Below, in pieces: positions 411 to 63,722 of a stretch of 64,000 nucleotides of DNA. A model generated the notes under the pieces. It saw only the letters and a list, made by a program, of their open reading frames with translations. It was not told where the DNA came from and searched no databases. Made by a program: the position numbers and the translations under genes. Every line of letters begins with the position of its first letter. The stretch's first letter is position 1. The DNA is from Segetibacter aerophilus (GTDB taxonomy: Bacteria > Bacteroidota > Bacteroidia > Chitinophagales > Chitinophagaceae): positions 620,001 to 684,000 of the forward strand of contig NZ_BJYT01000001.1 in NCBI RefSeq assembly GCF_007991655.1, written 5' to 3'.

Positions 411-451
411 TGTTGGTATTGGTATTTTAAAAAGATGAATAGTTACTTGTT

Positions 452-477
452 GTACAAGGGAGTGACACAACGATGTT
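452..477 (+). repeat. Dispersed ACAACGATG repeat, copy 1
   Basis: Best-preserved copy of the intergenic repeat found fourteen times in the window: GTACAAGGGA followed directly by the core GTGACACAACGATGTT (first A/G shared). It lies between the stop of the small membrane protein gene (499) and the exonuclease gene start (267). Confidence 0.75.
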
Positions 478-498
478 AGGTATAGATCCAATTAGTGG

Positions 499-792
499 CT
501 ACAAAAGAAACTTCCAGATTAAAGAAGCTACTCCGTAAATACATGTTGCGATAAAAATTCCTTTGGCTGTTTGATCTAGGCGTTTATTAATATATAAGGT
601 GAAAATTGCTGCGTTGGCTACAAGAGAAACACTTACCAAAGCAGTCAGCAGGGTTCGTTGTACAAGGATAATATGAACAAATTCGCCGAAGGACATTACA
701 CTTTTGAACTGAATGAAGTAGTACAACAGCATGCCAACTATAGGAGCTATAAAGCCCAGGATGATACCTAACTTGAGGTCGTCTTTTAGCAT
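499..792 (-). CDS. Small membrane protein of unknown function
   Basis: The 97-residue product has three hydrophobic stretches (about residues 8-27, 42-65 and 76-96) that look like membrane helices, with a lysine/arginine-containing loop before the last one. I do not recognise a named family. Its ATG overlaps the surE stop codon in the arrangement TAATG, so it is very probably co-transcribed and translationally coupled with surE. Start choice is firm because of this overlap. The function cannot be deduced; the context only suggests a partner of the surE transcript. Confidence 0.7.
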   Translation of the reverse strand: MLKDDLKLGIILGFIAPIVGMLLYYFIQFKSVMSFGEFVHIILVQRTLLTALVSVSLVANAAIFTLYINKRLDQTAKGIFIATCIYGVASLIWKFLL

Positions 793-1733
793 TAAGTAAG
801 ATTGAATGTTTTTTCAAGCTTTTCTTTCAGCTTGTAATTAGTAAGGTCGAACTGCACAGGCACTACGCTTGCGTAATTATGGTTGAGGGCCCACACGTCG
901 GTGTCGCGGCCTTTGTCGAAATTGACAAACTCGCCGGTCAGCCAATAATACTTTTTGCCGGTTGGGTCGGTACGCTCGGCGAAGTCTTCTTCGTACTTCG
1001 CATAAGCCTGGCGACAGATCTTTAGACCCTTCAGTTGTTCGACTGTTACAGCGGGAAAATTTACGTTTAAGCAAAGATGCTTGTCGATCGCTTTAGTGGT
1101 AAGAATTTGCTCTACAATCAAGCGGGCGTACTTTTTAGCACCGGTAAAATCAGCTTCAAGACTGTAGTCAAGTAAAGAGAAACCTACACTTGGAATGCTT
1201 TCAATAGCTGCTTCCAGGGCGGCCGACATTGTCCCTGAGTAAATAACATTAATGGAATGATTGGCGCCATGGTTTACGCCGCTGAGACAAATATCAGGCT
1301 TACGGTGAAGGATTTTATCTACAGCAAGTTTTACACAGTCAACTGGAGTGCCGTTGCACGAGTAAGCTTCTATGTTATCGCCAAACTGGTTGACCTGCAC
1401 CATACGGAGAGGGGTACCGATCGTAATAGCATGACCCATTCCGCTCTGAGCTTTGTCAGGCGCTATAACCACTATTTTGCCCAAATCTTTTACTGCATCA
1501 ACCAGCGCTGCAATACCAGGTGCTGTAACGCCATCATCGTTAGTAATAAGTATAATAGGTTCCTCTTTTGAAGACCGTTGGCGAACTGCCGGTGTACTTT
1601 TCTTTGACTCTTTTGCGGCTTTTACCTTTGTATCCTGCTGGGGCTGTTCTGGTCCTCGGCCGGGTTTTAATTTGGTTGAAGTATTAGCTTGCAGTTCTTC
1701 ATTTTCTACAGTGTCCTTTTTAGCTTTTGCCAT
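792..1733 (-). CDS. surE: 5'/3'-nucleotidase SurE with a charged N-terminal extension
   Basis: SurE is a metal-dependent survival protein that removes phosphate from nucleoside 5'- and 3'-monophosphates. The family signature ILITNDDGVTAPG appears near residue 60-72, followed by the conserved SGMGHAITI, NGTPVDCV, SGVNHGANHS and YSGTMSAALEA blocks. The first ~58 residues are an added Lys/Glu/Gln-rich low-complexity segment that usual SurE proteins (about 250 residues) lack. I prefer the ATG at 1733 (MAKAKKD) over an upstream in-frame ATG at 1763, because family starts are close to the catalytic motif and the upstream leader has no family similarity. The downstream small membrane protein overlaps its stop codon. 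Confidence 0.9.
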   Translation of the reverse strand: MAKAKKDTVENEELQANTSTKLKPGRGPEQPQQDTKVKAAKESKKSTPAVRQRSSKEEPIILITNDDGVTAPGIAALVDAVKDLGKIVVIAPDKAQSGMGHAITIGTPLRMVQVNQFGDNIEAYSCNGTPVDCVKLAVDKILHRKPDICLSGVNHGANHSINVIYSGTMSAALEAAIESIPSVGFSLLDYSLEADFTGAKKYARLIVEQILTTKAIDKHLCLNVNFPAVTVEQLKGLKICRQAYAKYEEDFAERTDPTGKKYYWLTGEFVNFDKGRDTDVWALNHNYASVVPVQFDLTNYKLKEKLEKTFNLT

Positions 1734-1844
1734 ATATTCTTTACTTAACGGTGCAAAAGTCATTATAAATATATTGCTTCCAAAAAAATGTTTTTGCTAA
1801 GCTAATATTATTAGTAATTTGCAGCTAAACAAATTAGCCTTGTT

Positions 1845-2597
1845 ATGTCTCAAGCCGGAAAAAATTTGAAATACCTTAGGAAACTAAGAGGGTGGACCCA
1901 GGAAGAATTTGCCAATAAACTGAAAATTAAACGTTCACTTTTAGGTGCATATGAAGAGGAGCGGGCTGAGCCAAAACTAGAGGTGCTCGAGATTATTAGC
2001 GGCATTTTTAAAATAACATTGGACGAGTTGTTATTGAAAGATGTAGCTAATGCTAAGGGTAGCACTTACATGGAAAAACGAAGGCAATTGAAGATGTCTT
2101 CAAATGTTGCTGAGATACAATTTGTACCTGTTAAAGCTGCGGCCGGATACTTGGCAGGTTATGCCGATCCAGATTTTATTGATGAGTTGAATACGTTTAC
2201 GCTGCCAATGTTAGGTGCAGGTAGCTACCGCGCGTTTGAAATAATTGGAGATAGTATGTTGCCTACTCAAAGCGGATCTGTGATTGTTGGTGAGAAGCTG
2301 GAAAATATCGAGGATGTAAAAACAAGCAATACTTACATCGTGGTTTCGCGAAATGAAGGTATTGTATATAAAAGGGTGTTGAAGAATAACCGCAGCAAAA
2401 CGAAGGTTACGCTGGTGAGCGATAATCCCCTGTACGAGCCTTACCAGGTAAACGCTGATGAAATAGTTGAATTATGGCAAGCGCAGATGATCATTTCAAA
2501 GGCGAACGTGCAGCAGCGCTGGGACGTAAATCAATTGGCTAGCCTGGTTAATAATTTACAGGAACAGGTAAGCAGCATGAAGAAAAAACTGAATTAG
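1845..2597 (+). CDS. XRE-family regulator with C-terminal S24 (LexA/CI-like) peptidase domain
   Basis: The 250-residue protein has an N-terminal helix-turn-helix domain (about residues 8-62; GWTQEEFANKL is the recognition region) and a C-terminal S24 domain. The catalytic Ser is in GDSML (S137) and the Lys in VYKR (K176), spaced as in LexA, CI and UmuD. Ala-Gly pairs at about residues 100-101 and 104-105 (AAAGYLAGY) are candidate self-cleavage sites. This suggests a repressor whose activity may respond to DNA damage or another signal by autocleavage. A coiled-coil-like C-terminal tail (NLQEQVSSMKKKLN) follows. It is divergent from surE. The target genes are unknown; no phage genes are nearby. 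Confidence 0.85.
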   Translation: MSQAGKNLKYLRKLRGWTQEEFANKLKIKRSLLGAYEEERAEPKLEVLEIISGIFKITLDELLLKDVANAKGSTYMEKRRQLKMSSNVAEIQFVPVKAAAGYLAGYADPDFIDELNTFTLPMLGAGSYRAFEIIGDSMLPTQSGSVIVGEKLENIEDVKTSNTYIVVSRNEGIVYKRVLKNNRSKTKVTLVSDNPLYEPYQVNADEIVELWQAQMIISKANVQQRWDVNQLASLVNNLQEQVSSMKKKLN

Positions 2598-2648
2598 GAA
2601 TTGAGTTTTCAGCAATTCGTGGCTTAAGATACCAGTGTTGAAGTTGTT

Positions 2649-3221
2649 TCAACTGATATCGATATTGTACTTATTTAATAATCCTAACACGTCTGGTAAA
2701 GAAAACTTTGCTTTTTTGACTTTATTCTGTTCCGGGTCGAACGCATAGTTTTTAGCTGTTCTTAAATCAGCTTTTTCTAAAATTGTTTGCACAAACACTG
2801 CATCAGCTAGATCACAGTGTTTGAATATTGCAGCGGTTAGGTCTGCTTCTGCGAAATCCACTTGCTTCAAACTGCAATCGCTAAAAACTGCTTTTTTCAT
2901 CTTCTTTTTGTAAAATGAAGAATAGTCGAGTTGACAATTTTCAAAGGTCGCAGAGAATAAAAAGTCGTTGCAAACGCTGAAGTCGAGACCCATCAGCTTA
3001 CAGTTTAGAAACCTGATGTTTTTTATTCCTGTATTTGCTAAAACTGCCAAAGAAAGGTTTGAACCTTTAAACAGGCAATCCATAAAATTAATATTACTTA
3101 GATTAGTTTTAGAGAAGTTGCAGTTGATGAATTCGCACTCCGTGAATTCTTTTACCGTTAATTGCTTTTCTTCATAATTGAGGTTTTCAAATGTTTGATC
3201 TTCTTGAACAGGGCCTTCCAA
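2649..3221 (-). CDS. Pentapeptide-repeat protein
   Basis: The 190-residue product is built of tandem A(D/N)LXX-like repeats (for example NFSKTNLSNINF, CSLKQVDFAEADLTAAIF, CDLADAVF), which fold as a right-handed quadrilateral beta-helix. No signal peptide or membrane segment is visible, so it is probably cytoplasmic. Some pentapeptide proteins (Qnr, McbG) protect gyrase by mimicking DNA, but nothing here proves that role. The first in-frame start is TTG at 3221; the next ATG is 47 codons further in and would cut into the repeats, so TTG is preferred. Confidence 0.8.
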   Translation of the reverse strand: MEGPVQEDQTFENLNYEEKQLTVKEFTECEFINCNFSKTNLSNINFMDCLFKGSNLSLAVLANTGIKNIRFLNCKLMGLDFSVCNDFLFSATFENCQLDYSSFYKKKMKKAVFSDCSLKQVDFAEADLTAAIFKHCDLADAVFVQTILEKADLRTAKNYAFDPEQNKVKKAKFSLPDVLGLLNKYNIDIS

Positions 3222-3301
3222 AATTGTAGTTTTAAAGTTTTAGATATAGAAAAGACAGTTTGAATAAAATCCTTAGCAAGTGATGAAGAATGGACTACAG
3301 C

Positions 3302-3325
3302 AAAAGTGAGTGACACAACGATGTT
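3302..3325 (+). repeat. Dispersed ACAACGATG repeat, copy 2
   Basis: Perfect core GTGACACAACGATGTT preceded by AAAAGTGA; it lies between the pentapeptide gene and the lipoprotein gene. Confidence 0.7.
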
Positions 3326-3357
3326 GAGGTATGGACAAAAGCCGGTAACAAAAAGAT

Positions 3358-3855: not shown

Positions 3856-4086
3856 ACTCGTACGATTTCTTGAAAGTAAAGTCATTTCTGCTGTGGAAAA
3901 CATGAAAATATCCACACCTGTTTAATAAGTAATGCAAGTAAAGCATTGAGTCAGGCATCTCAAACAGCATTTGGATCAATAACTTTTAATTAAGAAAGAT
4001 GGTTAATCATAATTTTCAACGATTAAAATAACAAATCGTAACATTCTAAACAGTTTTTACGAAAGGGAAATGTGGGTGCACATCGT

Positions 4087-4094
4087 TATTTTTG
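4087..4094 (+). promoter_or_regulatory. Bacteroidota -7 box TATTTTTG before lepA
   Basis: TATTTTTG matches TAnnTTTG, the -7 element known from Bacteroidota housekeeping promoters. The lepA ATG follows 7 bases after the box, so the transcript would start almost at the start codon. This also rules out the upstream GTG (4072) as the real start. Confidence 0.6.
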
Positions 4095-7157: not shown

Positions 7158-7178
7158 GATTGCGACGCAACGATGATG
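7158..7178 (+). repeat. Dispersed ACAACGATG repeat, copy 3 (CpG-rich variant)
   Basis: Variant TGCGACGCAACGATG in the spacer between hisG and the acetyltransferase gene. It keeps all three CpG sites that most other copies have lost. Its presence supports starting the next gene downstream at 7214. Confidence 0.6.
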
Positions 7179-11990: not shown

Positions 11991-12788
11991 CTAGTTGCTT
12001 ATGTACTTTACAAACGAGCGTTTTGCGATTGGCAAAAGGGTTTCCTCGAGAGGATAAGCCAAGTCGGTTTGAATGTTATACACTGCCGGGTTGGGTAGGT
12101 CACGGCGGTTTTTTATCAATTCACCTTTTATATTTTCGGGGGAATTACTCACCGTTCTATCCCACTTATGGATGTAATCTGTGCGGATGCCGCGGTACTT
12201 CTCATCGTGTTTTTCGAAAAAGGTCAGGCGATATTGGTAAACTACAATTGCGTTGTACTTGCCATCTTTCAAAAATAAATATCCCTCATTTACATCTAGG
12301 GGTACAAGGCCAACGGGCTCTATGCTCATCTTGGTTTCAACAAATTCATAAATCTCCGCTCCAGTCTTAATGGTACTTTTTATCTTGTTTGCTGAGTAGT
12401 GAATAATGTCTTCCAGTTCTTTCATCAACTCATCATCTTCAATCATTTGCTCGTAAGCAAATTGAAGTTTTTGAATGTTGATATCTGTGAGTTGTTTGGG
12501 AAAGTGCTCCTGCAGAAATTTCTTATTTTCTCTGAAGGATATGATGTTATTGTAATGAAAGATGACATCGGCAAGTTGCGGGTACAACTTGTTTTCGTTG
12601 AAGTATTTATTGACCTCGTTGAGGTATGCTAGAAGCGTATATTTCTTTAGTTCAAAATCTATATATCCTTCCGTAAACCACGTTTCAGACAAAGTTTTCA
12701 TCTCCGCTAAATTTTGTTTATCAAATATAACGTTTGACGTAGAAATTGAGATAAAGGTTAAAGCTATAACCGACTTTAACATCCACAT
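11991..12788 (-). CDS. Predicted secreted protein of unknown function
   Basis: The 265-residue product begins with MLKSVIALTFISIST, a short hydrophobic segment that could be a signal peptide, followed by a helix-rich, Lys/Glu/Asp-rich body and a C-terminal part with KYNAIVVYQYRLTFF and DYIHKWDRTVSN. No conserved catalytic pattern or family is recognised. ATG codons at 12788 and 12782 are both possible. Neighbours (adenine deaminase upstream) do not help to predict function. Confidence 0.6.
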   Translation of the reverse strand: MWMLKSVIALTFISISTSNVIFDKQNLAEMKTLSETWFTEGYIDFELKKYTLLAYLNEVNKYFNENKLYPQLADVIFHYNNIISFRENKKFLQEHFPKQLTDINIQKLQFAYEQMIEDDELMKELEDIIHYSANKIKSTIKTGAEIYEFVETKMSIEPVGLVPLDVNEGYLFLKDGKYNAIVVYQYRLTFFEKHDEKYRGIRTDYIHKWDRTVSNSPENIKGELIKNRRDLPNPAVYNIQTDLAYPLEETLLPIAKRSFVKYISN

Positions 12789-12827
12789 GCATTAAAATCT
12801 TATGCCATTTGGTTGCTTGTACGATGT

Positions 12828-14492
12828 TTAGTTCTCACTGCTATTTTCGAATGAAAAATTGTCGCCGTTAAATAAACCCTTATCGCTGAGTTTAAGATGC
12901 GGTATTACCAGGAGAGCCATAAAAGAAAGTGTCATGAATGGAGCAGACAATTTCGATCCAAGGCTTTTCGCCACGGTGTCAAGTGCTGTGTACTCACTCG
13001 CAATCTCGTACCCATCTTTATTGCTCATCAACCCCCCAACAGGCAAAGCGATAACCTTAGATGCTGTCTTAGAAACACAACTAACACCACCACGTGCTTC
13101 GATGACTAGATTTGCTGCTTTACTTATGCTTTCGTCATCTACACCGGTTACAATAATGTTATGACTATCGTGCGCTACGGAGGATGCAATTGCCCCCTCT
13201 TTCAAACCGAAATTTTTGATCCATCCTTTCGCTATGACAGCTTTTTGATAACGGTTGATGACTGCAATTTTGAGAATGTCTTCTTTTACATTGCTAGTTA
13301 AACGTCCACCTTCTGTCACTAGGAGAGAGGAGGATACAAGAATTTTGTTTGTGATTAGTTGACCGTCCAGCGCTTCAATCACCGCTACCTTATGCTCATC
13401 AGCAACAGGATCTAAGACTTGAAAATTTTCGGGAATTGTAAAATCACATTCAAAATGATTGATACTACCGAAAGGAACAGATTTGATTTTTGTAACCCCA
13501 TTTTCTGCAACCAGGACACCGCCGATGTAGGTAGCAATTATATCAAAATTTGTTAGGTCTTTTGCAATTATAAAATCTGCAGGATCACCTTCTTTTAGTA
13601 AGCCTACATCTAACTTATAATGTTGGACTGGATTGATGCATGCCGCCCGCAATACCTTAAAAACATCAACTCCTTTAGCTATGGCTCTGGCACACAGTTT
13701 ATTTATATGACCTTCAACCAGGCTATCAGGATGTTTATCATCGCTGCAAAACATTATGTTGGAAGAATGTTCATTTAAAAGATCGACAAGTGCATCGAAA
13801 TTTTTAGCGGCGCTACCTTCTCTTATCAGAATCTTCATTCCAAGCTTGAGCTTATCGAGCGCCTCTTCTGCAGTAAAACACTCGTGATCCGTGCTAATGC
13901 CCGCTTCAATATATTTCTTAGCATCTTCTCCTCTTAAGCCAGGAGCATGTCCATCCACCGGCTTGTTGTGTGTATGTGAAGCAGCTATCTTTTTCATTAC
14001 TTCATCATCTCCAAACAATACCCCTGGAAAGTTCATCATTTCGCTGAGGTATTTTATTTCTTTCCGTTCCAGCAGTTTTTCTACAGCAGTAGAATCTAGT
14101 GCTGCGCCTGCCGTTTCGAAGGTGGTAGCAGGCACACAACTTGGTGCACCGAAATTGAATTTGAATGGAACCTGGTTGCCATTATCTATCATGTATTCTA
14201 CACCTTCAATCCCACAAACATTTGCAATTTCATGAGGGTCGCTGACAGTGGCAACGGTACCATGTACAACTGCAAGTCTTGCAAACTCAGAAGGTATTAA
14301 CATGCTGCTTTCGATATGTACGTGGCTATCTATAAACCCGGGAAGGATAAAGGTCTGAAGCGTGTCATCAGCATCAATTTCTTTAATGTTTTTTATAATT
14401 CCCCCCGCAATCTCAATCTGAGCTGCAAAAATTCTCTTTTTCGGTATATCAACGATTTTGCCTTTTATGAAAAACTGTTCATTATCATCCAT
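12828..14492 (-). CDS. ade: Adenine deaminase
   Basis: Ade deaminates adenine to hypoxanthine in purine salvage and belongs to the amidohydrolase superfamily. The protein (554 residues from ATG 14492) has the metal site [13 protein letters not shown], then [31 protein letters not shown] and [15 protein letters not shown], and the C-terminal family block [17 protein letters not shown] at 14519 would extend it by nine codons, but the -7 box at 14521-14528 puts the transcript start inside that extension, so ATG 14492 is chosen. Confidence 0.94.
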
Positions 14493-14520
14493 ACTTAAAA
14501 GTTGTTTTATGCGAATCAAA

Positions 14521-14528
14521 CAAAACTA
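14521..14528 (-). promoter_or_regulatory. -7 box TAGTTTTG before ade
   Basis: Minus-strand TAGTTTTG fits TAnnTTTG and lies 28 bases before the chosen ade ATG. Confidence 0.5.
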
Positions 14529-14600
14529 CTTCTTTGTGTACAGACTTACTTTTTCAAAACGGTTTGAACAGGTGGGAGAAGATAGGGTGGGGTATAACAA

Positions 14601-18259: not shown

Positions 18260-19120
18260 TTAAAGTTGAGACTGCCGAAGCGAAAAGATTTTCCTGTATT
18301 TAGAAGGCGTCATTGCTTTCACTTTCAGGAACTGCTTGTTGAAATTGGCGATCGTACTAAATCCACTTTCATAGCTGGCGCCTTCTATAGTAATGCTGGT
18401 ATTATCTGTAAGTAGTTTGCACGCGTATCCAATCCTAACTTCATTAAGAAAATCGATATACCTTTTTCTTGTGCTTTTTTTAAAGTAGTTACAAAATGCC
18501 GGGATACTCATATCTGCTAACCTTGCTATTGTAGACAACTGGATAGGCTCTCTAAAGTTTTCCATTGTGTAATGAAAAATACGATCAATCCGTTCCCTGT
18601 TTTTGTTATTTACCTCTTTGACTTCCTGGGTGGAAAGGGTGTCAAACTCTTCTTTTTTAGCAAGTAAATCCAGGCATTCACACAGCGTAATTATTCTTCT
18701 AAACCCTTTTTCCTTTTCAAGAGTTCCAATAAGGGTATTCATTACTTCTTTACTTTTTCCTTTTATTTTCAATCCATGTAAAGAAGTTTTTAGGAGATGG
18801 AGCACTTCTTTGCTTTCAGGTAAATTCAAAAATTCATTGCCCCAGAAATCTTGCTTAAAGTGTACTACAATAGCGCTTGTAATAACATCGCCACTTTTCT
18901 TAAAAGTATGCGGAAGGTTAGCCCCTAGAAAAAAAACATCACCCACTTCGAATTCACCCACATAGTTCCCGATAAAACTAAGACCCGCACCTTCTGTAAA
19001 AAGGATCAGTTCATACTCGATGTGCTGGTGCCAGTTGACCTCAAAATTGGGTGTACGATGAGTGCGTGCAACAAAAGAAGTATTGTCACTAAGCGGAAGT
19101 TGTTCAACGAGTGGCTTCAT
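18260..19120 (-). CDS. AraC-family regulator with cupin sensor domain
   Basis: The 286-residue protein has an N-terminal cupin fold (about residues 20-110: HWHQHIEYELILFTEG-like, with H..H..E) that would bind a small ligand such as a sugar, and two C-terminal helix-turn-helix units (about 185-285: IARLADMSIPAFCNYFKKST and GASYESGFSTIANFNKQF). It is divergent from xylB and thus the obvious candidate regulator of the pentose locus. Whether it activates or represses, and its ligand, cannot be read from sequence. Confidence 0.88.
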   Translation of the reverse strand: MKPLVEQLPLSDNTSFVARTHRTPNFEVNWHQHIEYELILFTEGAGLSFIGNYVGEFEVGDVFFLGANLPHTFKKSGDVITSAIVVHFKQDFWGNEFLNLPESKEVLHLLKTSLHGLKIKGKSKEVMNTLIGTLEKEKGFRRIITLCECLDLLAKKEEFDTLSTQEVKEVNNKNRERIDRIFHYTMENFREPIQLSTIARLADMSIPAFCNYFKKSTRKRYIDFLNEVRIGYACKLLTDNTSITIEGASYESGFSTIANFNKQFLKVKAMTPSKYRKIFSLRQSQL

Positions 19121-20859: not shown

Positions 20860-20926
20860 TGTAGTATGTAGCAGGCAGCTTTAAGCTCTTAGCGATCAGC
20901 TTGCACCGGTCTTGAGTTCTTTATTC

Positions 20927-20951
20927 AATATCGTTGTGTCACTCACTGCGA
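20927..20951 (-). repeat. Dispersed ACAACGATG repeat, copy 4
   Basis: Reverse-oriented copy: AGTGAGTGACACAACGATATT on the minus strand, one substitution in the core (GATA for GATG). Confidence 0.7.
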
Positions 20952-21152
20952 CAGTTTGTTCTTTTTTGAGGTTTTAATTCAAAAAGCGTAAAAGGCAGTA
21001 GGTCTAAAAATAATGGTAAAGGTGCGGGGCGAATTTAGGACGCAGAGGGAGATTGAAGTAAGGTAATGGGGGTTACCAAAACGGAAGAATCTGACTTGAT
21101 CTAATTTTGCCCTGACCTTACCAGGTTATAGGTGAAAGGCCGGAAAAAAGTT

Positions 21153-21175
21153 GAAGAGTGCGACGCAAGAGAGTT
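21153..21175 (+). repeat. Dispersed ACAACGATG repeat, copy 5 (degenerate)
   Basis: GAGTGCGACGCAAGAGAGTT: the CpG-rich variant with its right part mutated. Accepted because the first 12 bases match the CpG-rich variant of copies 3 and 6. Confidence 0.4.
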
Positions 21176-29391: not shown

Positions 29392-29415
29392 GTACAAGTG
29401 TGCGACGCAACAATG
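29392..29415 (+). repeat. Dispersed ACAACGATG repeat, copy 6 (CpG-rich variant)
   Basis: GTACAAGTG followed by TGCGACGCAACAATG, immediately downstream of the palindromic element. It keeps two of the three CpG sites of the family. Confidence 0.65.
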
Positions 29416-37674: not shown

Positions 37675-37742
37675 TTACAAAAGCGCCACTTGCTATTCTT
37701 TTTTGAAGGAATGTTATATTGTCTGCCTTAGAATCTCTTCCT

Positions 37743-37768
37743 AACATCGTTGTGTCACACCCTTATAC
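37743..37768 (-). repeat. Dispersed ACAACGATG repeat, copy 8
   Basis: Minus strand GTATAAGGGTGTGACACAAC then GATGTT; well conserved, in the 245-base spacer after the DUF6702 gene. Confidence 0.75.
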
Positions 37769-37919
37769 AGCCAATCTTTATTGAACTCCGTTAGTGGACA
37801 GAATCAATCTTTTTGAGGCAAAATTTCAAGAATTCGAAATCCATATAATATGGTGGAGTCAACATGGTAATGCAGGTCACTAAGCCTTAGTACAGATGAC
37901 TCAAAAGATTTCTAACAGT

Positions 37920-39320
37920 TTATGCAACAGCTCTTGCTGTCAAACGCATGGGCTGCATTTTCCAGTAAGTGAGAGAACGCCACAACCATTCAAATGGGCC
38001 AAAGCGGTAATATCGCATCCAGATATAGGAGAAGATCATTTGAAAGATCCACACTGCGCCTACAATATAATATAGCTGGTGAAACTTAAGTTGGTTATAG
38101 TATCCCAGCCCGTAGCCGTGGAATATTAATGTGCAGATAATGCTTTGCATGAGGTAATTAGTAAAAGCCATTTGACCAACATTGGCTAGTACTTTCATCA
38201 ACCGGGGAAGAATCTGGCTCCTGTATATTAACATTAAAAGACTTGCATGTCCTAGTGATAAAAGAAGCCGCCGTAAATCGTACAGTGCGCCATGCGGAAC
38301 GCGGTGAGCATCTAAATACCGGCCTATATCTGTAACTGCGACTCCTTTGCTAAAAAATATCCAGCCAATCGGTATTCCAATTCCGTACCCCACTAATAAT
38401 AGCAGGCCGTAAGAAGAGGTAGTAAGTTTGTTGGAGAAAAATCCTAATCTAAATAGTGCCATCCCAATGAACATCATACCGAGCATATCAGGCCAAAAGT
38501 GATAGGTGATCATTGTTTCCAAACTACCGTTTCTATCTGCGAAATGTGTAAAAACGGTTGCGTATCCACCACGCCTTTCTGATACGTTTTCAGCCGTCCT
38601 CTCCATGTCCGGCTTCCTGTTCTTCTCAATTTCCTCCCATGCTGCTTTGGCCGATTTTTGCTTTTCTGTTAGCTTTTGATGAGATTTTTCAGCGGCGATT
38701 GCTTTAACATATTCAAGTCTCTTTTCTCTGAATTCGGCGTAACCCATCTGTTGTTTAAAATGGCCTGTTGCAAAACAAGCGAGTCCTATTAGAAACAACC
38801 ATTTAGGCGCTGTTTTTCTAAAAGGGTATAATAACATTCCGAACAAGCCGTAATAAAACAGGATGTCTCCTTCCCATAGTAACACATACGCATTTAATAC
38901 ACCAAATAATACCAGCCATAACAGGCGGCGGTAATAATATTCCGCCACACTTGCACCGCCTTCTACTTCTTTTTTGCTCAGGGTAAAAAGCACCATTCCC
39001 GCTCCAAACAACATAGAGAACAAGCCGCGCATGGTACCATCAAAAAAGGAAGTAACGATGGCCAGCGTATAATAATCGGCAGTGTTGTGAGGACCATTTA
39101 TGATATTATAAAAAGCACTTCCGTCAATACCAAACCCCGGAATATTCATTAAAAGAATACCTAATAATGCAAAACCCCTGACCATGTCTATCGTTTGTAT
39201 CCGCTCACTTGCTCCAACCGGTCGAGGCTTTAGTTTTGGTAAGGCGACAGTCTCATCCGGGCTAATGGAAGCGTCGAGAGGTAGAGTAGTTGTTGCGCTA
39301 TAGCCGGTAGTGGTAATCAT
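37920..39320 (-). CDS. DUF418 membrane protein, copy B
   Basis: The 466-residue protein has the DUF418 layout: an N-terminal cytoplasmic stretch, IDMVRGFALLGILLMNI, multiple membrane helices, the conserved C-terminal block GQMAFTNYLMQSIICTLIFHGYGLG in two parts, and RYYRFGPFEWLWRSLTYWK. Between helices is a charged Lys/Glu-rich insert (about residues 200-250). DUF418 proteins are related to acyltransferase/OpgC-type membrane proteins of unknown role. It is a tandem paralogue of the next gene. Confidence 0.87.
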   Translation of the reverse strand: MITTTGYSATTTLPLDASISPDETVALPKLKPRPVGASERIQTIDMVRGFALLGILLMNIPGFGIDGSAFYNIINGPHNTADYYTLAIVTSFFDGTMRGLFSMLFGAGMVLFTLSKKEVEGGASVAEYYYRRLLWLVLFGVLNAYVLLWEGDILFYYGLFGMLLYPFRKTAPKWLFLIGLACFATGHFKQQMGYAEFREKRLEYVKAIAAEKSHQKLTEKQKSAKAAWEEIEKNRKPDMERTAENVSERRGGYATVFTHFADRNGSLETMITYHFWPDMLGMMFIGMALFRLGFFSNKLTTSSYGLLLLVGYGIGIPIGWIFFSKGVAVTDIGRYLDAHRVPHGALYDLRRLLLSLGHASLLMLIYRSQILPRLMKVLANVGQMAFTNYLMQSIICTLIFHGYGLGYYNQLKFHQLYYIVGAVWIFQMIFSYIWMRYYRFGPFEWLWRSLTYWKMQPMRLTARAVA

Positions 39321-39339
39321 AAAAAGAGTTTATATGATA

Positions 39340-40821
39340 TTAAGTAAGAGCAGGAATAATAACTTCGGTATTAGTCGAAGTGTTCTTCCTTATAGGTAGC
39401 CATTTGCCATAAGTCATACAACGCCAGAGCCATTCCGCAGGACCCAATTCAAATCTCTGTAACCAGAAGATGCTAAATACAATCTGTACAATCCAGATTT
39501 CACCTGCTAAAAAGTACAATTCGTGTTGCTCTAGCTTGCCGTAGTAGCCCATACCGTAGCCGGTAAAAAATACGCTGCAAATAATGCTTTGCAATAAATA
39601 GTTAGTGAGCGCAAGCCGGCCAACGGAAGCGACGGCTTTCAAAAAAGAGGATAACCTTGTTATAACAGCAAGAAACATTACAAGAGCGGCGTAGCCAACG
39701 GTCATTAGTAACTTTTCAAGTGGAAAGAGGATGTTATAGGGGAATAGATTTTTGACGACGTACTTGGTATAATCTGCAATAGAGACACTGTAGTAATGCA
39801 GTCGAAACCACCCTAAAAGTATTCCCACTGCGAAACCTGCAAGTGCGATGAGCAAGTACTGCTTCCGGGATAGTTTATTTTCGAAAAACCCAAACTTGAG
39901 AAGAGCCATTCCAAACAGCATCATACTTGCTACTTCCCACACGCCCGTCTGAAACATCCATTGCGATTCGCGGTTTTGGGTTGCGGGTAAAACGTGGCTC
40001 CAGAGGTCTGCAAAGGAAGTGGTTTGCATCTCCTTGTTTTCGCCTTCATCTTTTTTGGGGTCATACTTCGTGTTCTTCAACAATCCTTCCCACGCCTGTT
40101 TGTCGGCCTTTTGTTTTTTTGATAAACTATCCTTTTTTACCTGTGCAATCGCTTTATTATCTCCCTTTATTGCAGTGATTGCACGTGCCCTCGCAGATGA
40201 GTCGCGGCTTAGTTTCTTTTCAAAAGCTATAACTGCGGTGTACTTGTTATAAGCCTTTTTATCATCCGAATACTTCCAGTAATTTTTGCCGCAAAAGATA
40301 ACCGTGGTGATCATGGCCGCAATAAGAAGTCCTTTGGAAGACAGTCTAACAAAGGGAAATAGTAATATTCCAACGATGGCTAAATGATAAAGTATGTCTC
40401 CCGACCACAAGAACAACAGGGCATTCAACAAGCCAAAGCCTAAAAGCCACATCTGTCTTCTAATAAAAAGGTCTGGTACTGATAGCTTATTTTGTTGATT
40501 GGGTCTAGATAAATACAGCACTACTCCCGCTCCGAAAACCAGGGAGATAAGGGCAATCATCTTGCCTTCAATTAACAATTTAACGAGGGAAAATAAACGA
40601 TAATTATCGCTGTTGGGATGCTCTAGTATTTGGAGTTGACGGTTGTTACCTAACCCACCAAAGATCCAAATGCTAACAAGTAAACCACCTAATAGCGCTA
40701 TCGCCCTAAGTACATCTAAAGGTTGAATTCGTTCCGGCTTTCGTGGAGTTCCCTCTGCATTTATTGCGATATCAGGAGTTTCCTGATCCGGGGTAGCCAA
40801 ATTGAGATTAGGTGTGGACAT
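39340..40821 (-). CDS. DUF418 membrane protein, copy A
   Basis: From ATG 40821 the 493-residue protein begins MSTPNLNLATPDQETPD and shares the architecture of the neighbouring DUF418 protein: IQPLDVLRAIALLGGLLVSI, about ten membrane helices, a long charged insert (EKKLSRDSS to QTTSFADLW), VGRLALTNYLLQSIICSVFF and FELGPAEWLWRCMTY. Upstream ATG 40872 would add 17 residues and overlap the TAnnTTTG-like region, so 40821 is chosen. The gap to copy B is 19 bases, so the two form an operon. Confidence 0.86.
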   Translation of the reverse strand: MSTPNLNLATPDQETPDIAINAEGTPRKPERIQPLDVLRAIALLGGLLVSIWIFGGLGNNRQLQILEHPNSDNYRLFSLVKLLIEGKMIALISLVFGAGVVLYLSRPNQQNKLSVPDLFIRRQMWLLGFGLLNALLFLWSGDILYHLAIVGILLFPFVRLSSKGLLIAAMITTVIFCGKNYWKYSDDKKAYNKYTAVIAFEKKLSRDSSARARAITAIKGDNKAIAQVKKDSLSKKQKADKQAWEGLLKNTKYDPKKDEGENKEMQTTSFADLWSHVLPATQNRESQWMFQTGVWEVASMMLFGMALLKFGFFENKLSRKQYLLIALAGFAVGILLGWFRLHYYSVSIADYTKYVVKNLFPYNILFPLEKLLMTVGYAALVMFLAVITRLSSFLKAVASVGRLALTNYLLQSIICSVFFTGYGMGYYGKLEQHELYFLAGEIWIVQIVFSIFWLQRFELGPAEWLWRCMTYGKWLPIRKNTSTNTEVIIPALT

Positions 40822-41021
40822 ACCGTTCGTTTTAGGGTGGCAGAAGTATACATAAGAAAAATACAATAACATTTTTTCATATGCAACTGGCGGAAGTACC
40901 CAAGGTTGTTATACTCTGCGTGAATACCCTATAAATACTCAAGGGGAAGCGGCAAGAAAAATAGAAAAGCTGGGGCACCAAAACAACGCTGCCTTGGTTT
41001 GTTGGGGAACTAAGATTGACT

Positions 41022-41047
41022 GTACAAGAGTGTGACACAACGATGTC
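41022..41047 (+). repeat. Dispersed ACAACGATG repeat, copy 9
   Basis: GTACAAGAG then TGTGACACAACGATGTC, well conserved, followed after three bases by a degenerate second half copy. Confidence 0.72.
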
Positions 41048-48057: not shown

Positions 48058-48484
48058 GTTCAGATCCGTCGACAATCCTGTGAGGTCTTGGGGTATAAGG
48101 TTTACAGGTTGTCAACATTAAAATTGTGATCGACATCCTTGTGTCACTCCCTTGTACTTTAAACCTTTTTTGAACTAGTTTGCCATTCCCACAACAATAG
48201 CTTCAATTGTTGAAAAGAGTCTTAGGTGACGACTTACTATAAAACTTGTTTTTTCTTTTATCTCCAAAACTATGGCTGTCGTTGCCCATAGCCTTGTTAT
48301 GATTGTTTTCATTTTTTTATCGTTTTCATGCAAAAAAATAGCACAGAGATTTGCAGAAAAAGGCGAAAGTGAAGAGCGGATAACAAGTATGTGATGAGGC
48401 CTCACATATTCAATCTGAATTGTAACTTTTTGTTTTTGTTGAATGGAAAGTCAAATTCGTAAATTCGCAGCCAATACAGTATCA
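48058..48484. other. Intergenic region before glnS
   Basis: 427 bases containing a reverse copy of the dispersed repeat (48132), an AT-rich stretch and, at the right end, a -7-like box TAAATTCG (48460-48467). An open frame on the minus strand (48175-48405) has poor coding character and no known similarity. Confidence 0.5.
48132..48157 (-). repeat. Dispersed ACAACGATG repeat, copy 11
   Basis: Minus strand: GTACAAGGGAGTGACACAAG then GATGTC; same left half as copy 1, with a single change in the core (AAGGATG). Confidence 0.75.
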
Positions 48485-53529: not shown

Positions 53530-53565
53530 GTTTTGTTATGTAAGCAGGCAGTTGAGCTATAGTTG

Positions 53566-53591
53566 AACATTGTTGTGTCACTCACTTGTGC
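53566..53591 (-). repeat. Dispersed ACAACGATG repeat, copy 12
   Basis: Minus strand GGCACAAGTGAGTGACACAA then CAATGTT; lies between the carbamoyltransferase and deacetylase genes. Confidence 0.7.
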
Positions 53592-53696
53592 CGGTATTAA
53601 TTCTATTCAACATGGTTGCTGCCTGCTTCTCTTCCTTTAAACAATTATCGTTATGTTTTTCCTTTAATTAAATATTTAGAAAGGTGACCATAACAA

Positions 53697-56401: not shown

Positions 56402-56446
56402 CCCGGCTAATTGCTTAGGCTCTTTTCAGTTCCAAAACCTAACCAG

Positions 56447-56479
56447 GCCGCAATGTTTAAAACACGTTGCGGCTTTTTT
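56447..56479 (+). terminator. Terminator after the 37-residue peptide gene
   Basis: GCCGCAATGT (56447-56456) and ACGTTGCGGC (56464-56473) form a stem with one wobble, followed by TTTTTT. Confidence 0.85.
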
Positions 56480-56536
56480 AATTCACACATACTCCGAGTT
56501 TGTTTCCAGCTAAAACAAAGGAACTTGCTGAATCTT

Positions 56537-57187
56537 CTACAGCTCATTCTTAAAGTTCTCTATGTTAAGTAGTTCAAAGAACTCGTTTTCTTCCAGTTCT
56601 TGAATGCATCCCGGCTGTAAATTTTTCAAAGTCAAATCTTCTATAGCAACTCTTATTAATCTTTTACACGGATGTCTTACAGCTGCAACCATTTTTCTCA
56701 CCTGCCTGAACTTGCCTTCTGTAAGCTTCAGCTGTAGCCATGTATATGCTTTATATTCCGAAAACTTATAACCACCTTCGAAAAGGTTTTCAGGCTTTTC
56801 TACCAGGTCAACTTCGCAAGGAGTAGTTGTATAATCTCCACCACCCTTTACTCTTATAGTTACCCCGTTTCTTAAATTATCGAGCGTTTCTTCACTCACC
56901 TTGTTTTCTACAAGTACCAGGTAAGTTCTTGTATGTTTTATGTCACCTTCAAATAATAACCGGGTTACTTTCTTGTTTGTTGTTAATATTAATAAGCCTT
57001 CAGAGTTAATGTCTAATCTTCCAACAGCATGAGTTCCTTCTGGAAAGTCAAACTCAAGGTCTCCAAGCAATTTTACCTTGTGCGAGCTGATAAATTGAGA
57101 AACCATATTGTATGGCTTGTTCAGGATAAAATAGCGGAAGGGTGTAAGATTTTCTGTTGGGTTTTGTTCCATTCTGCTCCAATTCAA
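56537..57187 (-). CDS. rRNA pseudouridine synthase, RsuA/RluE-like
   Basis: The enzyme isomerises uridine to pseudouridine in rRNA. The 216-residue protein has the catalytic signature VGRLDINSEGLLILT (Asp), LNKPYNMVSQF near the N-terminus, and the C-terminal LTEGKFRQVRKMVAAVRHPCKRLIRVAI typical of RluE. No S4 domain is present. ATG 57172 (MEQNP) is an alternative start. It overlaps nothing and is 27 bases downstream of the heptose gene. Confidence 0.9.
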   Translation of the reverse strand: MNWSRMEQNPTENLTPFRYFILNKPYNMVSQFISSHKVKLLGDLEFDFPEGTHAVGRLDINSEGLLILTTNKKVTRLLFEGDIKHTRTYLVLVENKVSEETLDNLRNGVTIRVKGGGDYTTTPCEVDLVEKPENLFEGGYKFSEYKAYTWLQLKLTEGKFRQVRKMVAAVRHPCKRLIRVAIEDLTLKNLQPGCIQELEENEFFELLNIENFKNEL

Positions 57188-57214
57188 AAAATTGCCCTTA
57201 AAGGTTTAAAGCAA

Positions 57215-57709
57215 TTATCCTAGTTTTCTTATTTTTTCTATAATGCCTGTAGTGGAGTAGCCTTCTACTATGGGATTGATCACGACTCGCCCGCCATTTG
57301 CAATCACTTCTTTTGCGCCTATCATTTGATCTAATGTGTAGTCGCCACCTTTTACAATTACATCGGGCATTAAGGCTATAATTAGTTCATAAGGTGTGTC
57401 CTCATCAAAAAGGGTAACTGCATCGACAATAGCGAGGCTTGCTAGCAATAAAGCCCTGCTTGACTCCTTATTTACTGGCCGCTCATCACCTTTTAACCTT
57501 TTGGTGCTTGCATCCGTATTCACTCCAACAATTAAAATATCTCCTTCCCTGGCAGCTTCGCTTAAAGAGGAAATATGACCTGCATGTAAAATATCAAAGC
57601 ACCCATTTGTAAATGAAATTGATTTACCTAAAAACCGCCACCTGGCAACTTGTTTTACGAGTTCTTCGCGTGTGTATATTTTAGTTGGAATTACTTCCGG
57701 CTTCTTCAT
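57215..57709 (-). CDS. D-glycero-beta-D-manno-heptose 1-phosphate adenylyltransferase
   Basis: This half of HldE (RfaE2) attaches AMP to heptose 1-phosphate, a step in ADP-heptose synthesis for lipopolysaccharide. From ATG 57709 the 164-residue protein has FTNGCFDILHAGHISSL (HxGH), GVNTDASTKRLKGDERPVN, FDEDTPYELI and VKGGDYT. Unlike HldE of enterobacteria it stands alone without the kinase domain. It overlaps the next gene by 29 bases. Confidence 0.92.
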   Translation of the reverse strand: MKKPEVIPTKIYTREELVKQVARWRFLGKSISFTNGCFDILHAGHISSLSEAAREGDILIVGVNTDASTKRLKGDERPVNKESSRALLLASLAIVDAVTLFDEDTPYELIIALMPDVIVKGGDYTLDQMIGAKEVIANGGRVVINPIVEGYSTTGIIEKIRKLG

Positions 57710-60554: not shown

Positions 60555-60586
60555 AATTAACCCTTAATATAATCTATTTCAATTAG

Positions 60587-62059
60587 ATGCGTAAGCTTTC
60601 CAGCATAGCTATTGCTATTTTTTTCTTCATTTCAGCATGTACTAAAATTGAATCTACAACCATAGGAAGCGGGTTAATTCCACCAGTAGATGGCGTCACT
60701 ACTTTAGATACTACTCTTGATGTTTTTACCAATAATTATCTTGATCCATTAGGAGACTCGGCAAAGGTTTATAAGACCGATGATCATGTAATTGGTATTA
60801 TAAACACCGATCCATTATTTGGAACAACAAAGGCTTCGGCTTTTTTTGAGCTGAAACCTACGACCTACCCATTCTCGTTCCCAAATGCATCCACTTTAAC
60901 TGCTGATTCGGCTGTATTGATTTTAAGTTATAAAGGTGTTTTTGGTGATACTACTATACCTCAAAACTGGGAGGTTCGTGAACTTACTGAGTCTTTAAGA
61001 GGTGATACAGTATTTAATGTTAGTAAGTCAGTTGCTACCGGCAACATACTTGGTACTAAAACAATAAATATACCGCGGCTAAAGGACTCTGTGAACTACG
61101 GTTTTGAAAATGCAAATAATCAAATACGTATTAAGCTTTCACAGACTTTGGCTAGCAGGTTAATAAGGCAGTTTGACTCGACAGCTAACACGGGAGCATA
61201 CTCAAAAGATACTGTTTTTAGAGAAAATTTTAAAGGTTTTGCGGTTATGCCTGCTGCCGGTAGCGGTGGTAATGCTCTTATCCGTGTAAATTTATCTGAT
61301 ACCAATACTAAACTTGCGCTGTTTTACACCTTCCAGAATACTAGTGCTGCCAAAAAAGATACAGCAGTAAGTTATTTTAGGTTTAGCGACGGTACTGCAA
61401 TACCTGTTTCAGGTAATGCAAATTACATCAAAAGAGATCGGACCGGTTCTCAATCTGCCCTGTTTACTACAGGCCCAACAACCAGAAACGACAGTCTTGT
61501 TTTTATTCAAACAATGCCCGGTACTTTTGCAACAATTAAAATCCCAAGGCTCCGGGAATTTCCAAACGTGCTTGTGCATAGAGCAGAGTTATTAGCTTTC
61601 CAAGCACCTGATGCAACAAGCTTAGCCTTAGTATTGACACCGCCTCGCTACTTGCTTTTAAGTAGTTATGATAGCACTAAAAAAGTTCAGATTAATATAC
61701 CGAACGATTTTAGTGTTTTGTCTGGAACACCCAACATTTCTACTTTCGGTGGTTTTATAATGGAAAGAGAAGTGCCTGGCTATGGGATTGTTAAGGCATA
61801 TAATTTTGACATTAGCAGGTATGTGCAAGGAATTGTATCTCGAAAAGATAGCAGCCTTACTCTTCGTTTATCTGCACCTAGCAACGACTCACTTCAATAT
61901 ACTCCACCTTATCCTCAGCCCAATGCTGTTTCTACTTTTTACATCACACCATCTGTAGCAAATAATCTTGCAGAAGGAAGGGTGCGCCTCGGAGGCGGAG
62001 GAATGACTAGACAAAATCAGTTGAGAATGCGTGTAAGGATAGTTTACTCCAGGATATAA
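60587..62059 (+). CDS. DUF4270 lipoprotein
   Basis: The 490-residue protein has a lipoprotein signal (MRKLSSIAIAIFFFISAC, with C18) followed by IESTTIGSGLIPPVDGVTT, the typical opening of DUF4270, and a long beta-rich secreted body ending NQLRMRVRIVYSRI. The domain is found across Bacteroidota as a surface or periplasmic lipoprotein of unknown role, usually right after the short GlgA-like gene. It starts 33 bases after it. Confidence 0.85.
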   Translation: MRKLSSIAIAIFFFISACTKIESTTIGSGLIPPVDGVTTLDTTLDVFTNNYLDPLGDSAKVYKTDDHVIGIINTDPLFGTTKASAFFELKPTTYPFSFPNASTLTADSAVLILSYKGVFGDTTIPQNWEVRELTESLRGDTVFNVSKSVATGNILGTKTINIPRLKDSVNYGFENANNQIRIKLSQTLASRLIRQFDSTANTGAYSKDTVFRENFKGFAVMPAAGSGGNALIRVNLSDTNTKLALFYTFQNTSAAKKDTAVSYFRFSDGTAIPVSGNANYIKRDRTGSQSALFTTGPTTRNDSLVFIQTMPGTFATIKIPRLREFPNVLVHRAELLAFQAPDATSLALVLTPPRYLLLSSYDSTKKVQINIPNDFSVLSGTPNISTFGGFIMEREVPGYGIVKAYNFDISRYVQGIVSRKDSSLTLRLSAPSNDSLQYTPPYPQPNAVSTFYITPSVANNLAEGRVRLGGGGMTRQNQLRMRVRIVYSRI

Positions 62060-62077
62060 GTGAAAGGTTTCAAACCT

Positions 62078-62085
62078 TATCTTTG
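62078..62085 (+). promoter_or_regulatory. -7 box TATCTTTG before metK
   Basis: Exact TAnnTTTG match, 29 bases before the metK ATG at 62114. Confidence 0.55.
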
Positions 62086-62113
62086 CCAGCATTTTAAAAA
62101 TACTAAACCAACT

Positions 62114-63367
62114 ATGCCTTATTTATTTACCTCGGAAAGTGTTTCTGAAGGACATCCTGATAAAGTGGCTGACCAGATCAGTGATGCATTAATTGATAAT
62201 TTTTTGGCTTTCGATCCGCAAAGTAAAGTTGCTTGTGAAACCTTAGTTACTACTGGCCAGGTCATTCTTGCCGGTGAAGTAAAAAGTAAAGCTTACCTCG
62301 ATGTGCAGGAAATTGCACGAGGTGTAATCCGTAAGATAGGCTATACTAAGAGCGAATACATGTTTGAGGCTAATAGCTGCGGCGTTCTATCAGCCATTCA
62401 CGAGCAGTCTTCAGATATTAATCAGGGGGTTGACAAGCAGGTAAAAGAGGAGCAAGGGGCTGGTGACCAGGGGATGATGTTTGGCTATGCGACTAATGAG
62501 ACCGAGTCTTATATGCCTTTGGCCCTTGATCTAGCTCACAAACTTTTACTCGAATTAGCCGTATTGCGAAGAGAAAATGGCATCATCAGTTATCTTAGAC
62601 CCGACGCTAAAAGCCAGGTTACGCTAGAGTACGACGACAATAATCAACCGGTAAGAATCGATGCAATTGTTATTTCCACTCAACATGATGATTTCGGTCC
62701 TGAGGAAACAATGCTTGCAAAGATTAAAAGTGATATTATTAATATTCTGATCCCGAGGGTAAAAAGTAAATACCAAAAATATAATCACCTTTTCACCAAC
62801 GATATTAAATATCACATTAATCCAACGGGCAAGTTTGTTATTGGCGGACCTCATGGAGATACAGGCTTAACCGGGCGTAAAATTATTGTTGATACTTACG
62901 GCGGGAAAGGTGCTCATGGAGGCGGTGCTTTCAGTGGTAAAGATCCTTCTAAAGTTGACCGTAGTGCAGCATATGCAACTCGTCACATTGCTAAAAACCT
63001 TGTTTCTGCCGGCCTTTGTAGTGAAGTGCTGGTTCAGGTGTCTTACGCGATTGGAGTTGCTCAACCAACCAGCATCTATGTAAATACTTATGGCACTGCA
63101 AAAGTTAGTATGACGGATGGTGAAATTGCAAAGCTGGTTGAAGGAATTTTTGACATGCGTCCTTACTTTATTGAGCAGCGTTTAAAACTAAGATCACCTA
63201 TTTATAGTGAAACCGCAGCTTATGGTCATATGGGTCGTGAGCCGGAAGTTAAGACTAAGCAATTTGTAACACCCGCTGGTGAAATAAAAACGATAGAAGT
63301 TGAACTGTTCACATGGGAAAAACTAGATCATGTTGAAAAGGTAAAACAAGCATTTAAGCTATCTTAA
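62114..63367 (+). CDS. metK: S-adenosylmethionine synthetase
   Basis: MetK makes SAM from methionine and ATP. From ATG 62114 the 417-residue protein begins [21 protein letters not shown] and has [16 protein letters not shown], the P-loop-like [21 protein letters not shown] (two blocks) and [19 protein letters not shown]. An upstream in-frame codon at 62060 would cross the -7 box, so the ATG at 62114 is preferred. It is followed by a strong terminator. Confidence 0.97.
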
Positions 63368-63387
63368 AAAAGCTAATAAAATACTTC

Positions 63388-63419
63388 AAACCTCTGTTCT
63401 AAAAAACAGAGGTTTTTTT
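63388..63419 (+). terminator. Terminator after metK
   Basis: AAACCTCTGTT (63388-63398) pairs perfectly with AACAGAGGTTT (63405-63415), followed by TTTT. Confidence 0.85.
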
Positions 63420-63444
63420 GTTTCCAGCAGAAGAGCCGCGATTA

Positions 63445-63470
63445 AACATCGTTGCGACGCTCCGTTCTAC
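63445..63470 (-). repeat. Dispersed ACAACGATG repeat, copy 13 (CpG-rich variant)
   Basis: Minus strand GTAGAACGGAGCGTCGCAAC then GATGTT; aligns base for base with copy 1 over 26 positions and keeps all CpG sites. Confidence 0.65.
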
Positions 63471-63565
63471 ATTTATATTACTATTGATCATTTGATGCCA
63501 TTTTTTGCAATACCAAATACTTGATTTTGAGTAGCTAGTTTTCCTGGTTGAACAATGGACAATCA

Positions 63566-63591
63566 GTTAAAGGGAGTGACACAACGATGCT
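63566..63591 (+). repeat. Dispersed ACAACGATG repeat, copy 14
   Basis: GTTAAAGGGAGTGACACAAC then GATGCT; conserved core, one change at the end. Confidence 0.75.
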
Positions 63592-63722
63592 GATTTGGGT
63601 TGTAAAGATCACCCAAAAAATCTTTCTTCTTTACTGAAAACGCTTGCTGTTTGGTTCAAACTATCATTGTCTTCCTTTTCTATTTTTCAGGCCATATTTA
63701 ATTTAGTCTTTACTTTGCCGTT

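What the first reader, a model, noticed from the sequence alone, without database searches (positions are those of the whole stretch)
451..63592. A previously unrecognised short dispersed repeat family (14 copies) confined to intergenic DNA
A 26-base element, left part GTACAAGGGA, right part GTGACACAACGATGTT, occurs at 452, 3302, 7158, 20927, 21153, 29392, 32862, 37743, 41022, 46826, 48132, 53566, 63445 and 63566. Both orientations occur. All copies lie between genes, including spacers inside the ara, his and etf operons. The element has no internal palindrome, so it is not a typical REP hairpin, promoter or terminator. A density of about one per 4.6 kb suggests hundreds in the genome. It could be a protein-binding site, a remnant of a small mobile element or a chromosome-organising motif.
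Basis: seen in the sequence. Interest (0 to 1): 0.7.

Follow-up and report, generated by a model that had tools for sequence, protein, structure and literature searches.

The report
Directional intergenic repeats with spacing rule
Hundreds of copies of a short DNA element sit between the genes of this bacterium and many of its relatives, are conserved in place, and rarely lie close to another copy pointing the same way, which suggests a directional chromosome site recognised by an unknown protein.

Summary
All 14 copies exist. The genome holds 395 core matches against 21 for the reversed pattern. On one contig 1 of 123 copies lies in a called gene, although 86.5% is coding. The 26 bases are the core of a ~75-base directional element found in many Chitinophagaceae, with 0 to 1,897 matches per genome. 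It has no stable fold, but its centre GYG-W-CRC co-varies: 344 of 352 copies are T..A or C..G. The core is conserved in place between species (90% identity against 68-75% in flanks). The surprise is a spacing rule: in own, G005 and G006 stretches, same-direction pairs under 3.5 kb number 21 against 137 inverted, and 397 against 388 beyond. Other genomes show the rule over 1-2 kb, sometimes weakly. It fails the REP tests, and homology-driven deletion, uptake-sequence and terminator readings fit poorly. Best reading: a mobile-derived, host-maintained protein site whose close same-strand copies are removed or disturbed in cis. The protein was not found; that mechanism is inferred.

The parts
448..505 (+). 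copy 1, T-type core GTGACACAAC at 462
   Evidence: profile 33.9 bits
3296..3353 (+). copy 2, T-type core at 3310; same direction as copy 1 at 2.8 kb, one of the 21 exceptions to the spacing rule
   Evidence: profile 37.2 bits
7161..7181 (+). copy 3, C-type core GCGACGCAAC at 7162 (weak profile match, core intact)
   Evidence: profile 15.5 bits; orthologous copy in G006
20904..20956 (-). copy 4, T-type core
   Evidence: profile 27.2 bits
21146..21199 (+). copy 5, C-type core at 21160; inverted partner of copy 4 in the same spacer
   Evidence: profile 28.8 bits
29389..29441 (+). copy 6, C-type core at 29402
   Evidence: profile 32.6 bits
32848..32886 (-). copy 7, mixed core GCGACAC
   Evidence: profile 24.2 bits; orthologue in G006 is C-type
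37723..37773 (-). copy 8, T-type core
   Evidence: profile 31.8 bits
41016..41073 (+). copy 9, T-type core at 41032
   Evidence: profile 38.0 bits
46818..46873 (+). copy 10, core GGGACGC
   Evidence: profile 28.1 bits; C-type in G006, T-type in G009 at the same place
48113..48162 (-). copy 11, T-type core
   Evidence: profile 31.8 bits
53541..53595 (-). copy 12, T-type core
   Evidence: profile 31.7 bits
63416..63475 (-). copy 13, core GCGTCGC
   Evidence: profile 35.9 bits
63562..63618 (+). copy 14, T-type core at 63576; inverted partner of copy 13 in the same spacer
   Evidence: profile 32.0 bits

Best explanation
The repeats are a family of ~75-base, directional, non-palindromic protein-recognition sites. 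They spread as small units without a gene, and their ~20-base core is now maintained by selection. A protein not yet identified binds the core dyad (GTGACAC or GCGACGC) and its A-rich flanks. When two sites lie on the same strand within about 1-3.5 kb, the protein can bring them together and remove or disturb the DNA between, as enzymes that act on directly repeated sites do (serine resolvases, single-strand HUH transposases, relaxases; recalled). Inverted sites are not substrates, so close same-direction pairs are lost and inverted neighbours remain. Shown: the element, its limits, its conservation in place, presence/absence differences between species, and the orientation rule. Inferred: the protein, mobility as the way of spread, and deletion or damage as the cause of the rule.
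For: Same-direction pairs below 3.5 kb 21 against 137 inverted, 397 against 388 from 3.5 to 15 kb; depletion against random placement is complete at short range and fades by 3.5 kb, while inverted pairs stay near expectation; 12 direct against 119 inverted below 3 kb, where unrelated intergenic words give 921 against 999 (the p of 2.6e-23 treats pairs as independent). Repeated in G001 (6 against 70 below 2 kb) and in another genus, G164 (3 against 26 below 2 kb). Not homology: copies average ~47% identity over 74 bases and ~65% over 28, and close direct pairs are not more divergent. Few decayed copies remain (38 intergenic sites of score 7 or more outside known copies, 8 in the reversed control), which fits whole-unit loss. 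Element spacers are not inversion breakpoints (0 of 60), as expected if only direct pairs react. Core conserved in place (90.3% against 68-75%); dyad positions co-vary (344 of 352) and switch together at five loci.
Against: No protein found. A site that endangers its neighbourhood should not be conserved in place without some other benefit, which I cannot name. The reach differs: ~1 kb in G172 (1 direct to 11 inverted below 1 kb, 6 to 6 at 1-2 kb) and weak beyond 1 kb in public contigs (5 to 9 and 4 to 8 at 1-2 kb). No deletion product was seen. Spacers longer or shorter by 79-163 bases also occur without a copy (6 of 87 shorter, against 10 of 52 with a copy), so gain and loss as a unit rests on few cases.
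Confidence: 0.35

Rival explanations
1. A chromosome-architecture or boundary site. A host nucleoid protein binds each copy and acts in one direction over a few kilobases, so a second same-direction copy nearby is useless and is lost.
For: Core conserved in place; regular spread on both strands; the reach tends to be shorter in the denser genomes G001 and G164 than in own, G005, G006; few copies in viral contigs (29 stretches).
Against: Redundant copies should leave decayed remnants in the same direction; few are seen. Copy number falls to about 0 in other species of the same genus, odd for a core function. G172 is dense, yet its reach is only ~1 kb.
Confidence: 0.25
2. A selfish miniature element moved by a transposase in trans, with orientation-specific target immunity: insertion near an existing copy in the same direction is blocked.
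For: Present/absent copies between species; in three of the cleaner cases the gap starts at -26 to -32, where conservation begins; large copy-number differences within genera.
Against: No terminal inverted repeats, no clear target duplication, no transposon found carrying the element at its ends; selfish copies should not keep the core in place nor switch dyad positions together.
Confidence: 0.2
3. A DNA-uptake sequence spread by biased transformation.
For: Abundance, both strands, a strong core with A-rich flanks, few copies in viral contigs.
Against: Uptake by known USS is reported to be independent of orientation (PMC1939737 and PMC7811141, passages), so a direction rule is not expected. 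PF00437 (pilus/secretion ATPase) gave only partial matches (~45-85 of 370 positions) in 18 of 18 genomes of both high and low copy number, 3 of them over the cut-off. ComEC is present in all 18, so it does not track copy number.
Confidence: 0.07
4. A transcription terminator or RNA element at transcript ends.
For: Densest in convergent spacers (2.35 per kb against 0.75 in divergent); the 3' side faces a gene end in 212 of 370.
Against: 158 of 370 face a gene start; between co-directional genes both directions are common (44 anti, 37 same); no stable fold as DNA and no Rfam match to it. Tandem genes each with a terminator should make direct pairs at 1-1.5 kb common; 0 against 21 inverted neighbours were seen.
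Confidence: 0.05

Closest known systems
REP/BIME elements of RAYT transposases (GTAG-tagged) and CGTC-tagged REPs
   Same: Short, intergenic, hundreds of copies; inverted doublets, direct dimers absent or rare in many families, mixed doublets common (PMC3733652 passages; PMC2817692 passages).
   Different: Those are 20-40 base palindromes; this folds no better than shuffles, is ~75 bases and lacks the GTAG tag followed by a stem. The genome with most matches, G164, has no PF01797 match. BIME modules are described as joined head to tail, whereas here direct neighbours are depleted out to 1-3.5 kb. The window genome's own RAYT (L053) has different, hairpin repeats.
DNA uptake sequences (USS/DUS) of Pasteurellaceae and Neisseriaceae
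   Same: Very abundant directional core, both strands, even spread.
   Different: USS/DUS also lie in genes (65% and 35%) and act regardless of orientation; here nearly all copies are intergenic and direction matters.
Small gene-less intergenic repeats in general (MITEs, ERIC, BOX; recalled, the MITE papers seen as listing only)
   Same: Short gene-less intergenic repeats, present or absent at orthologous spacers.
   Different: No terminal inverted repeats, core conserved in place, orientation-dependent spacing.

Membership tests
REP (RAYT-associated) | 20-40 base palindrome forming a hairpin | tested here: not met
   three typed composite strands fold at z 0.92, -0.12 and 0.79 against shuffles; only one co-varying column pair
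REP (RAYT-associated) | GTAG (or CGTC) tag next to the stem | tested here: not met
   conserved start of the core is GTACAAG and no stem follows; the dyad variant GCGTCGC contains CGTC but inside the dyad
REP (RAYT-associated) | a Y1 (PF01797) transposase in the genome, flanked by the repeat | tested here: not met
   no match at E<=0.001 in G164, nor in G007 and G145, 3 of 33 genomes; of three own loci, two have no copy with <=2 mismatches within ~1.5 kb, the third has one copy nearby and its own hairpin repeats
REP (RAYT-associated) | intergenic, more than 100 copies, inverted doublets | tested here: met
DNA uptake sequence | over-represented directional word on both strands | tested here: met
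DNA uptake sequence | promotes uptake in competent cells | not testable with these tools
   needs an experiment
DNA uptake sequence | type IV pilus uptake machinery | tested here: inconclusive
   only partial PF00437 matches in 18 of 18 genomes; other uptake routes not tested
MITE | terminal inverted repeats | tested here: not met
   no matching ends at -28 and +46 in the column profile, by inspection; no excess of flanking stems, 63 of 123 against 258 of 611 re-paired
MITE | target-site duplication and empty sites | tested here: inconclusive
   present/absent pairs exist; one clean case, no clear duplication
Rfam RNA families | match to an Rfam family | tested here: not met
   0 at gathering in the window; at E<=1 in 60 kb of G164 only a tRNA and five sub-threshold matches to unrelated families

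The most novel reading that the evidence does not exclude
The family marks out a directional chromosome system in Chitinophagaceae: a site every 2-7 kb, read by an unknown host protein that senses the relative direction of neighbouring sites and tolerates only opposed neighbours within a range that differs by lineage. The site has two interchangeable core words, each internally symmetric.
Probability: 0.25. Interest if true: 0.82.

Novelty: new variant of a known kind. Interest (0 to 1): 0.6.

Why it matters
It is the dominant intergenic repeat of this genome: the only intergenic 10-mers with 60 or more copies in 1.23 Mb belong to it (5 of 5). It is shared by many members of a large environmental family and follows an arrangement rule that I did not find described. 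A rule that depends on the direction of sites kilobases apart, but not on their similarity, points to a protein that acts on pairs of sites. That makes the question of what orders REP-like repeats in bacterial chromosomes testable with one pull-down and one reporter experiment.

Tried and rejected
Homologous deletion between direct repeats: rejected as the main cause, because copies average ~47% identity over 74 bases and ~65% over 28, and close direct pairs are not more divergent than others. RAYT/Y1 dependence: rejected, G164 has no match. Two-way site-specific recombination of inverted pairs: not supported, 0 of 60 element spacer comparisons inverted (the one inverted case was among 100 without an element). 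A variable stem around the element, suggested by the copy at 53566: no clear excess over re-paired flanks (63 of 123 against 258 of 611). Terminator and uptake readings: see rivals. Strict alternation along the chromosome in every genome: rejected; in own, G005 and G006, neighbours more than ~6 kb apart are about random. A fixed orientation towards gene ends, my first impression in the window, did not hold on C1. Ends of one larger transposon: same-spacer pairs are mostly 5'-to-5' but their spacing varies from 58 to ~290 bases and most copies are alone.

Limits: genes were called by a script of mine (ORF plus hexamer score), so start codons are rough. Pair counts come from 376 copies in 16 contig stretches (own 183, G006 88, G005 99, G007 3, G009 3). 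Searches ended with errors; the parts printed before the error are used, and the control was redone with other words. In one search two of 20 own-to-G006 rows were dropped from the identity count (own_C1|640928, decayed, core identity 0.54; own_C2|282386, a gap). In one search one switched pair (G1_C121|11020) has gaps in the core and is not counted among the five loci. In one search I used the 80 loci whose titles were shown, of 112; its <=3-mismatch scan has 4 and 9 hits in the reversed control, so a few of its pairs are noise. Neighbour orientation in G164 was counted by hand from the list.

Full report
Observation. The core GTGACACAACGATGTT (<=3 mismatches) occurs 11 times in the window against 0.53 in shuffles. 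In the genome (5.89 Mb, 79 contigs) GTGACACAACGATG with <=2 mismatches occurs 395 times against 21 for the reversed control, and a longer pattern 597 times against 1. A profile finds 123 copies in the 835 kb contig that holds the window and 0 in its reverse. One of 123 midpoints is in a called gene, where 86.5% of bases are coding. In own, G005, G006, G007 and G009 stretches 3 of 376 lie inside genes; in 100 kb of G164, 1 of 49. In public contigs of other genera 6 of 70 lie inside some open frame of 200 codons or more in any of six frames, a cruder test.

Anatomy. Anchored on the core, conservation runs from about -28 to +46 and is near background outside: an A-rich block (roughly GxTGAATAAAGA), GTACAAGWGW, GYGACRCAAC, a looser RATGTTGA, then GCYGG and ACAAAAA. 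The same profile appears in G001 and, in another genus, in G164. Two core words coexist in own, G005, G006, G001 and G164...GTGAGTGACACAAC (T-type) and ...GWGTGCGACGCAAC (C-type). Positions 1 and 5 pair as T-A in 177 and C-G in 167 of 352 full copies, other in 8. No other column pair that is apart in sequence shows pairing of this strength. Typed composites of both types fold no better than shuffles. So the symmetry is a 7-base dyad, more like a pair of protein half-sites than a hairpin.

Range. Two contig lengths (50,028 and 26,419) identify G001 with Segetibacter sp. RYN_294, so the window's genus is probably Segetibacter (inference). In 294 genomes of the family 213 have at least one match (single matches can be chance: the reversed control has 0-4), and counts run to 1,897 in G164, often very different within a genus. 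Viral contigs hold the exact 20-base core in only 29 stretches.

Evolution. In 18 of 20 own-to-G006 orthologous copies (two rows dropped, see Tried and rejected) the core (-10..+9) is 90.3% identical, the rest of the element 69.8%, the flanks 68.4% and 74.5%. The core is therefore held in place by selection or a similar force. At five loci the type differs between species at the same place and direction, with positions -1, 1 and 5 changed together; mixed cores occur too. Some copies are present in one species and absent in another: 17 comparisons show gaps over more than 60% of the element, and 10 of 52 collinear element spacers are 79-163 bases shorter in a relative, against 6 of 87 spacers without a copy. 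The cleanest case is a 121-base gap starting at -27. Most gaps are too diverged to give exact ends, and I could not tell insertion from deletion.

Arrangement. In own, G005 and G006 stretches (plus 6 copies from G007 and G009), pairs below 3.5 kb are 21 direct and 137 inverted; from 3.5 to 15 kb, 397 and 388. Against random placement in the observed spacers, direct pairs are depleted (ratios 0, 0.09, 0, 0.20, 0.23, 0.38, 0.52, 0.99 in 500-base steps) while inverted ones run from 0.53 to 1.55. Unrelated intergenic words show no such effect (921 direct, 999 inverted below 3 kb). In G001 there are 6 direct and 70 inverted pairs below 2 kb and about equal numbers beyond. In G164 there are 3 and 26 below 2 kb, and 43 of 48 neighbours are inverted; among 50 listed plus-strand copies 2 pairs lie below 2 kb against 14.6 expected. 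In G172, from 99 of 829 exact copies, the reach is ~1 kb only (1 to 11 below 1 kb, 6 to 6 at 1-2 kb). In public contigs direct to inverted is 4 to 19 (Segetibacter) and 0 to 12 (other genera) below 1 kb, and 5 to 9 and 4 to 8 at 1-2 kb. So the rule is clear at short range in every set, and its reach differs between lineages. Within one spacer most pairs have their 5' ends facing: below 100 bases apart 10 against 4, at 100-250 bases 12 against 0. In the own genome 12 of 15 such pairs combine the two types, but in G001 only 14 of 32.

Relation to genes. Convergent spacers are densest (2.35 per kb) and divergent ones poorest (0.75). The 3' side is the nearer to a gene in 270 of 370, and faces gene ends in 212 and starts in 158. 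This fits survival where there is room better than one fixed regulatory role.

Mechanism. The rule depends on relative direction and distance and not on similarity; both core types obey it. A process that acts on two sites in cis and only in direct orientation fits best; serine resolvases, relaxases and single-strand HUH transposases behave so (recalled). Y1 HUH enzymes are excluded as a requirement by G164. Inverted pairs leave no inversions, which speaks against ordinary two-way recombinases. That something is removed is inference. The conserved core says that the site is also useful, which a pure hazard does not explain; hence the modest confidence.

Known kinds. REPs share the intergenic position, the copy number, inverted doublets and mixed doublets (PMC3733652 and PMC2817692, passages; PMC6006769, passages). 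The hairpin and transposase tests fail, so this is not filed as a REP. USS/DUS share abundance and a directional core, but uptake is reported to be independent of orientation (PMC1939737 and PMC7811141, passages), and no full pilus ATPase match was found. No paper describing the family turned up, which cover open-licence PMC papers and were in part seen only as the first titles.

Noticed in passing
L053 (G000:C4) 1105-1683 (-) and 1780-2090: A RAYT-like Y1 transposase gene followed by several direct copies of its own hairpin repeat (CCGTAGTCGTCCTTCGGAACACTACGG), a second repeat family unrelated to the element; one copy of the element lies at 2093 beside it.
   Followed up: partly
window 53530-53630: The copy at 53566 sits inside an inverted repeat (AAGCAGGCAG ... 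CTGCCTGCTT) that is also present in G006; no such stem is general in the family.
   Followed up: partly
window 63380-63420: A terminator-like hairpin with a T run (AACCTCTGTTCTAAAAAACAGAGGTTTTTTT) directly abuts the 3' end of copy 13, also in G006.
   Followed up: no
window 12762-14592 and 56402-57215: Synteny breakpoints against G006: a one-gene block (12839-14551) lies beside the block 57215-67548 in G006 contig C101, while the 43 kb between them maps to other contigs. No copy of the element was found at these breakpoints.
   Followed up: no
window 37920-40872 (-): Two neighbouring DUF418 membrane-protein genes, perhaps a tandem duplication.
   Followed up: no
L303 (about 2590-2690) and L307 (about 18360-18450): In G164 the DNA between some paired copies is made of simple variable repeats (AGCTCAAAGCTCGC-like), as if these gather between the two 5' ends.
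   Followed up: no
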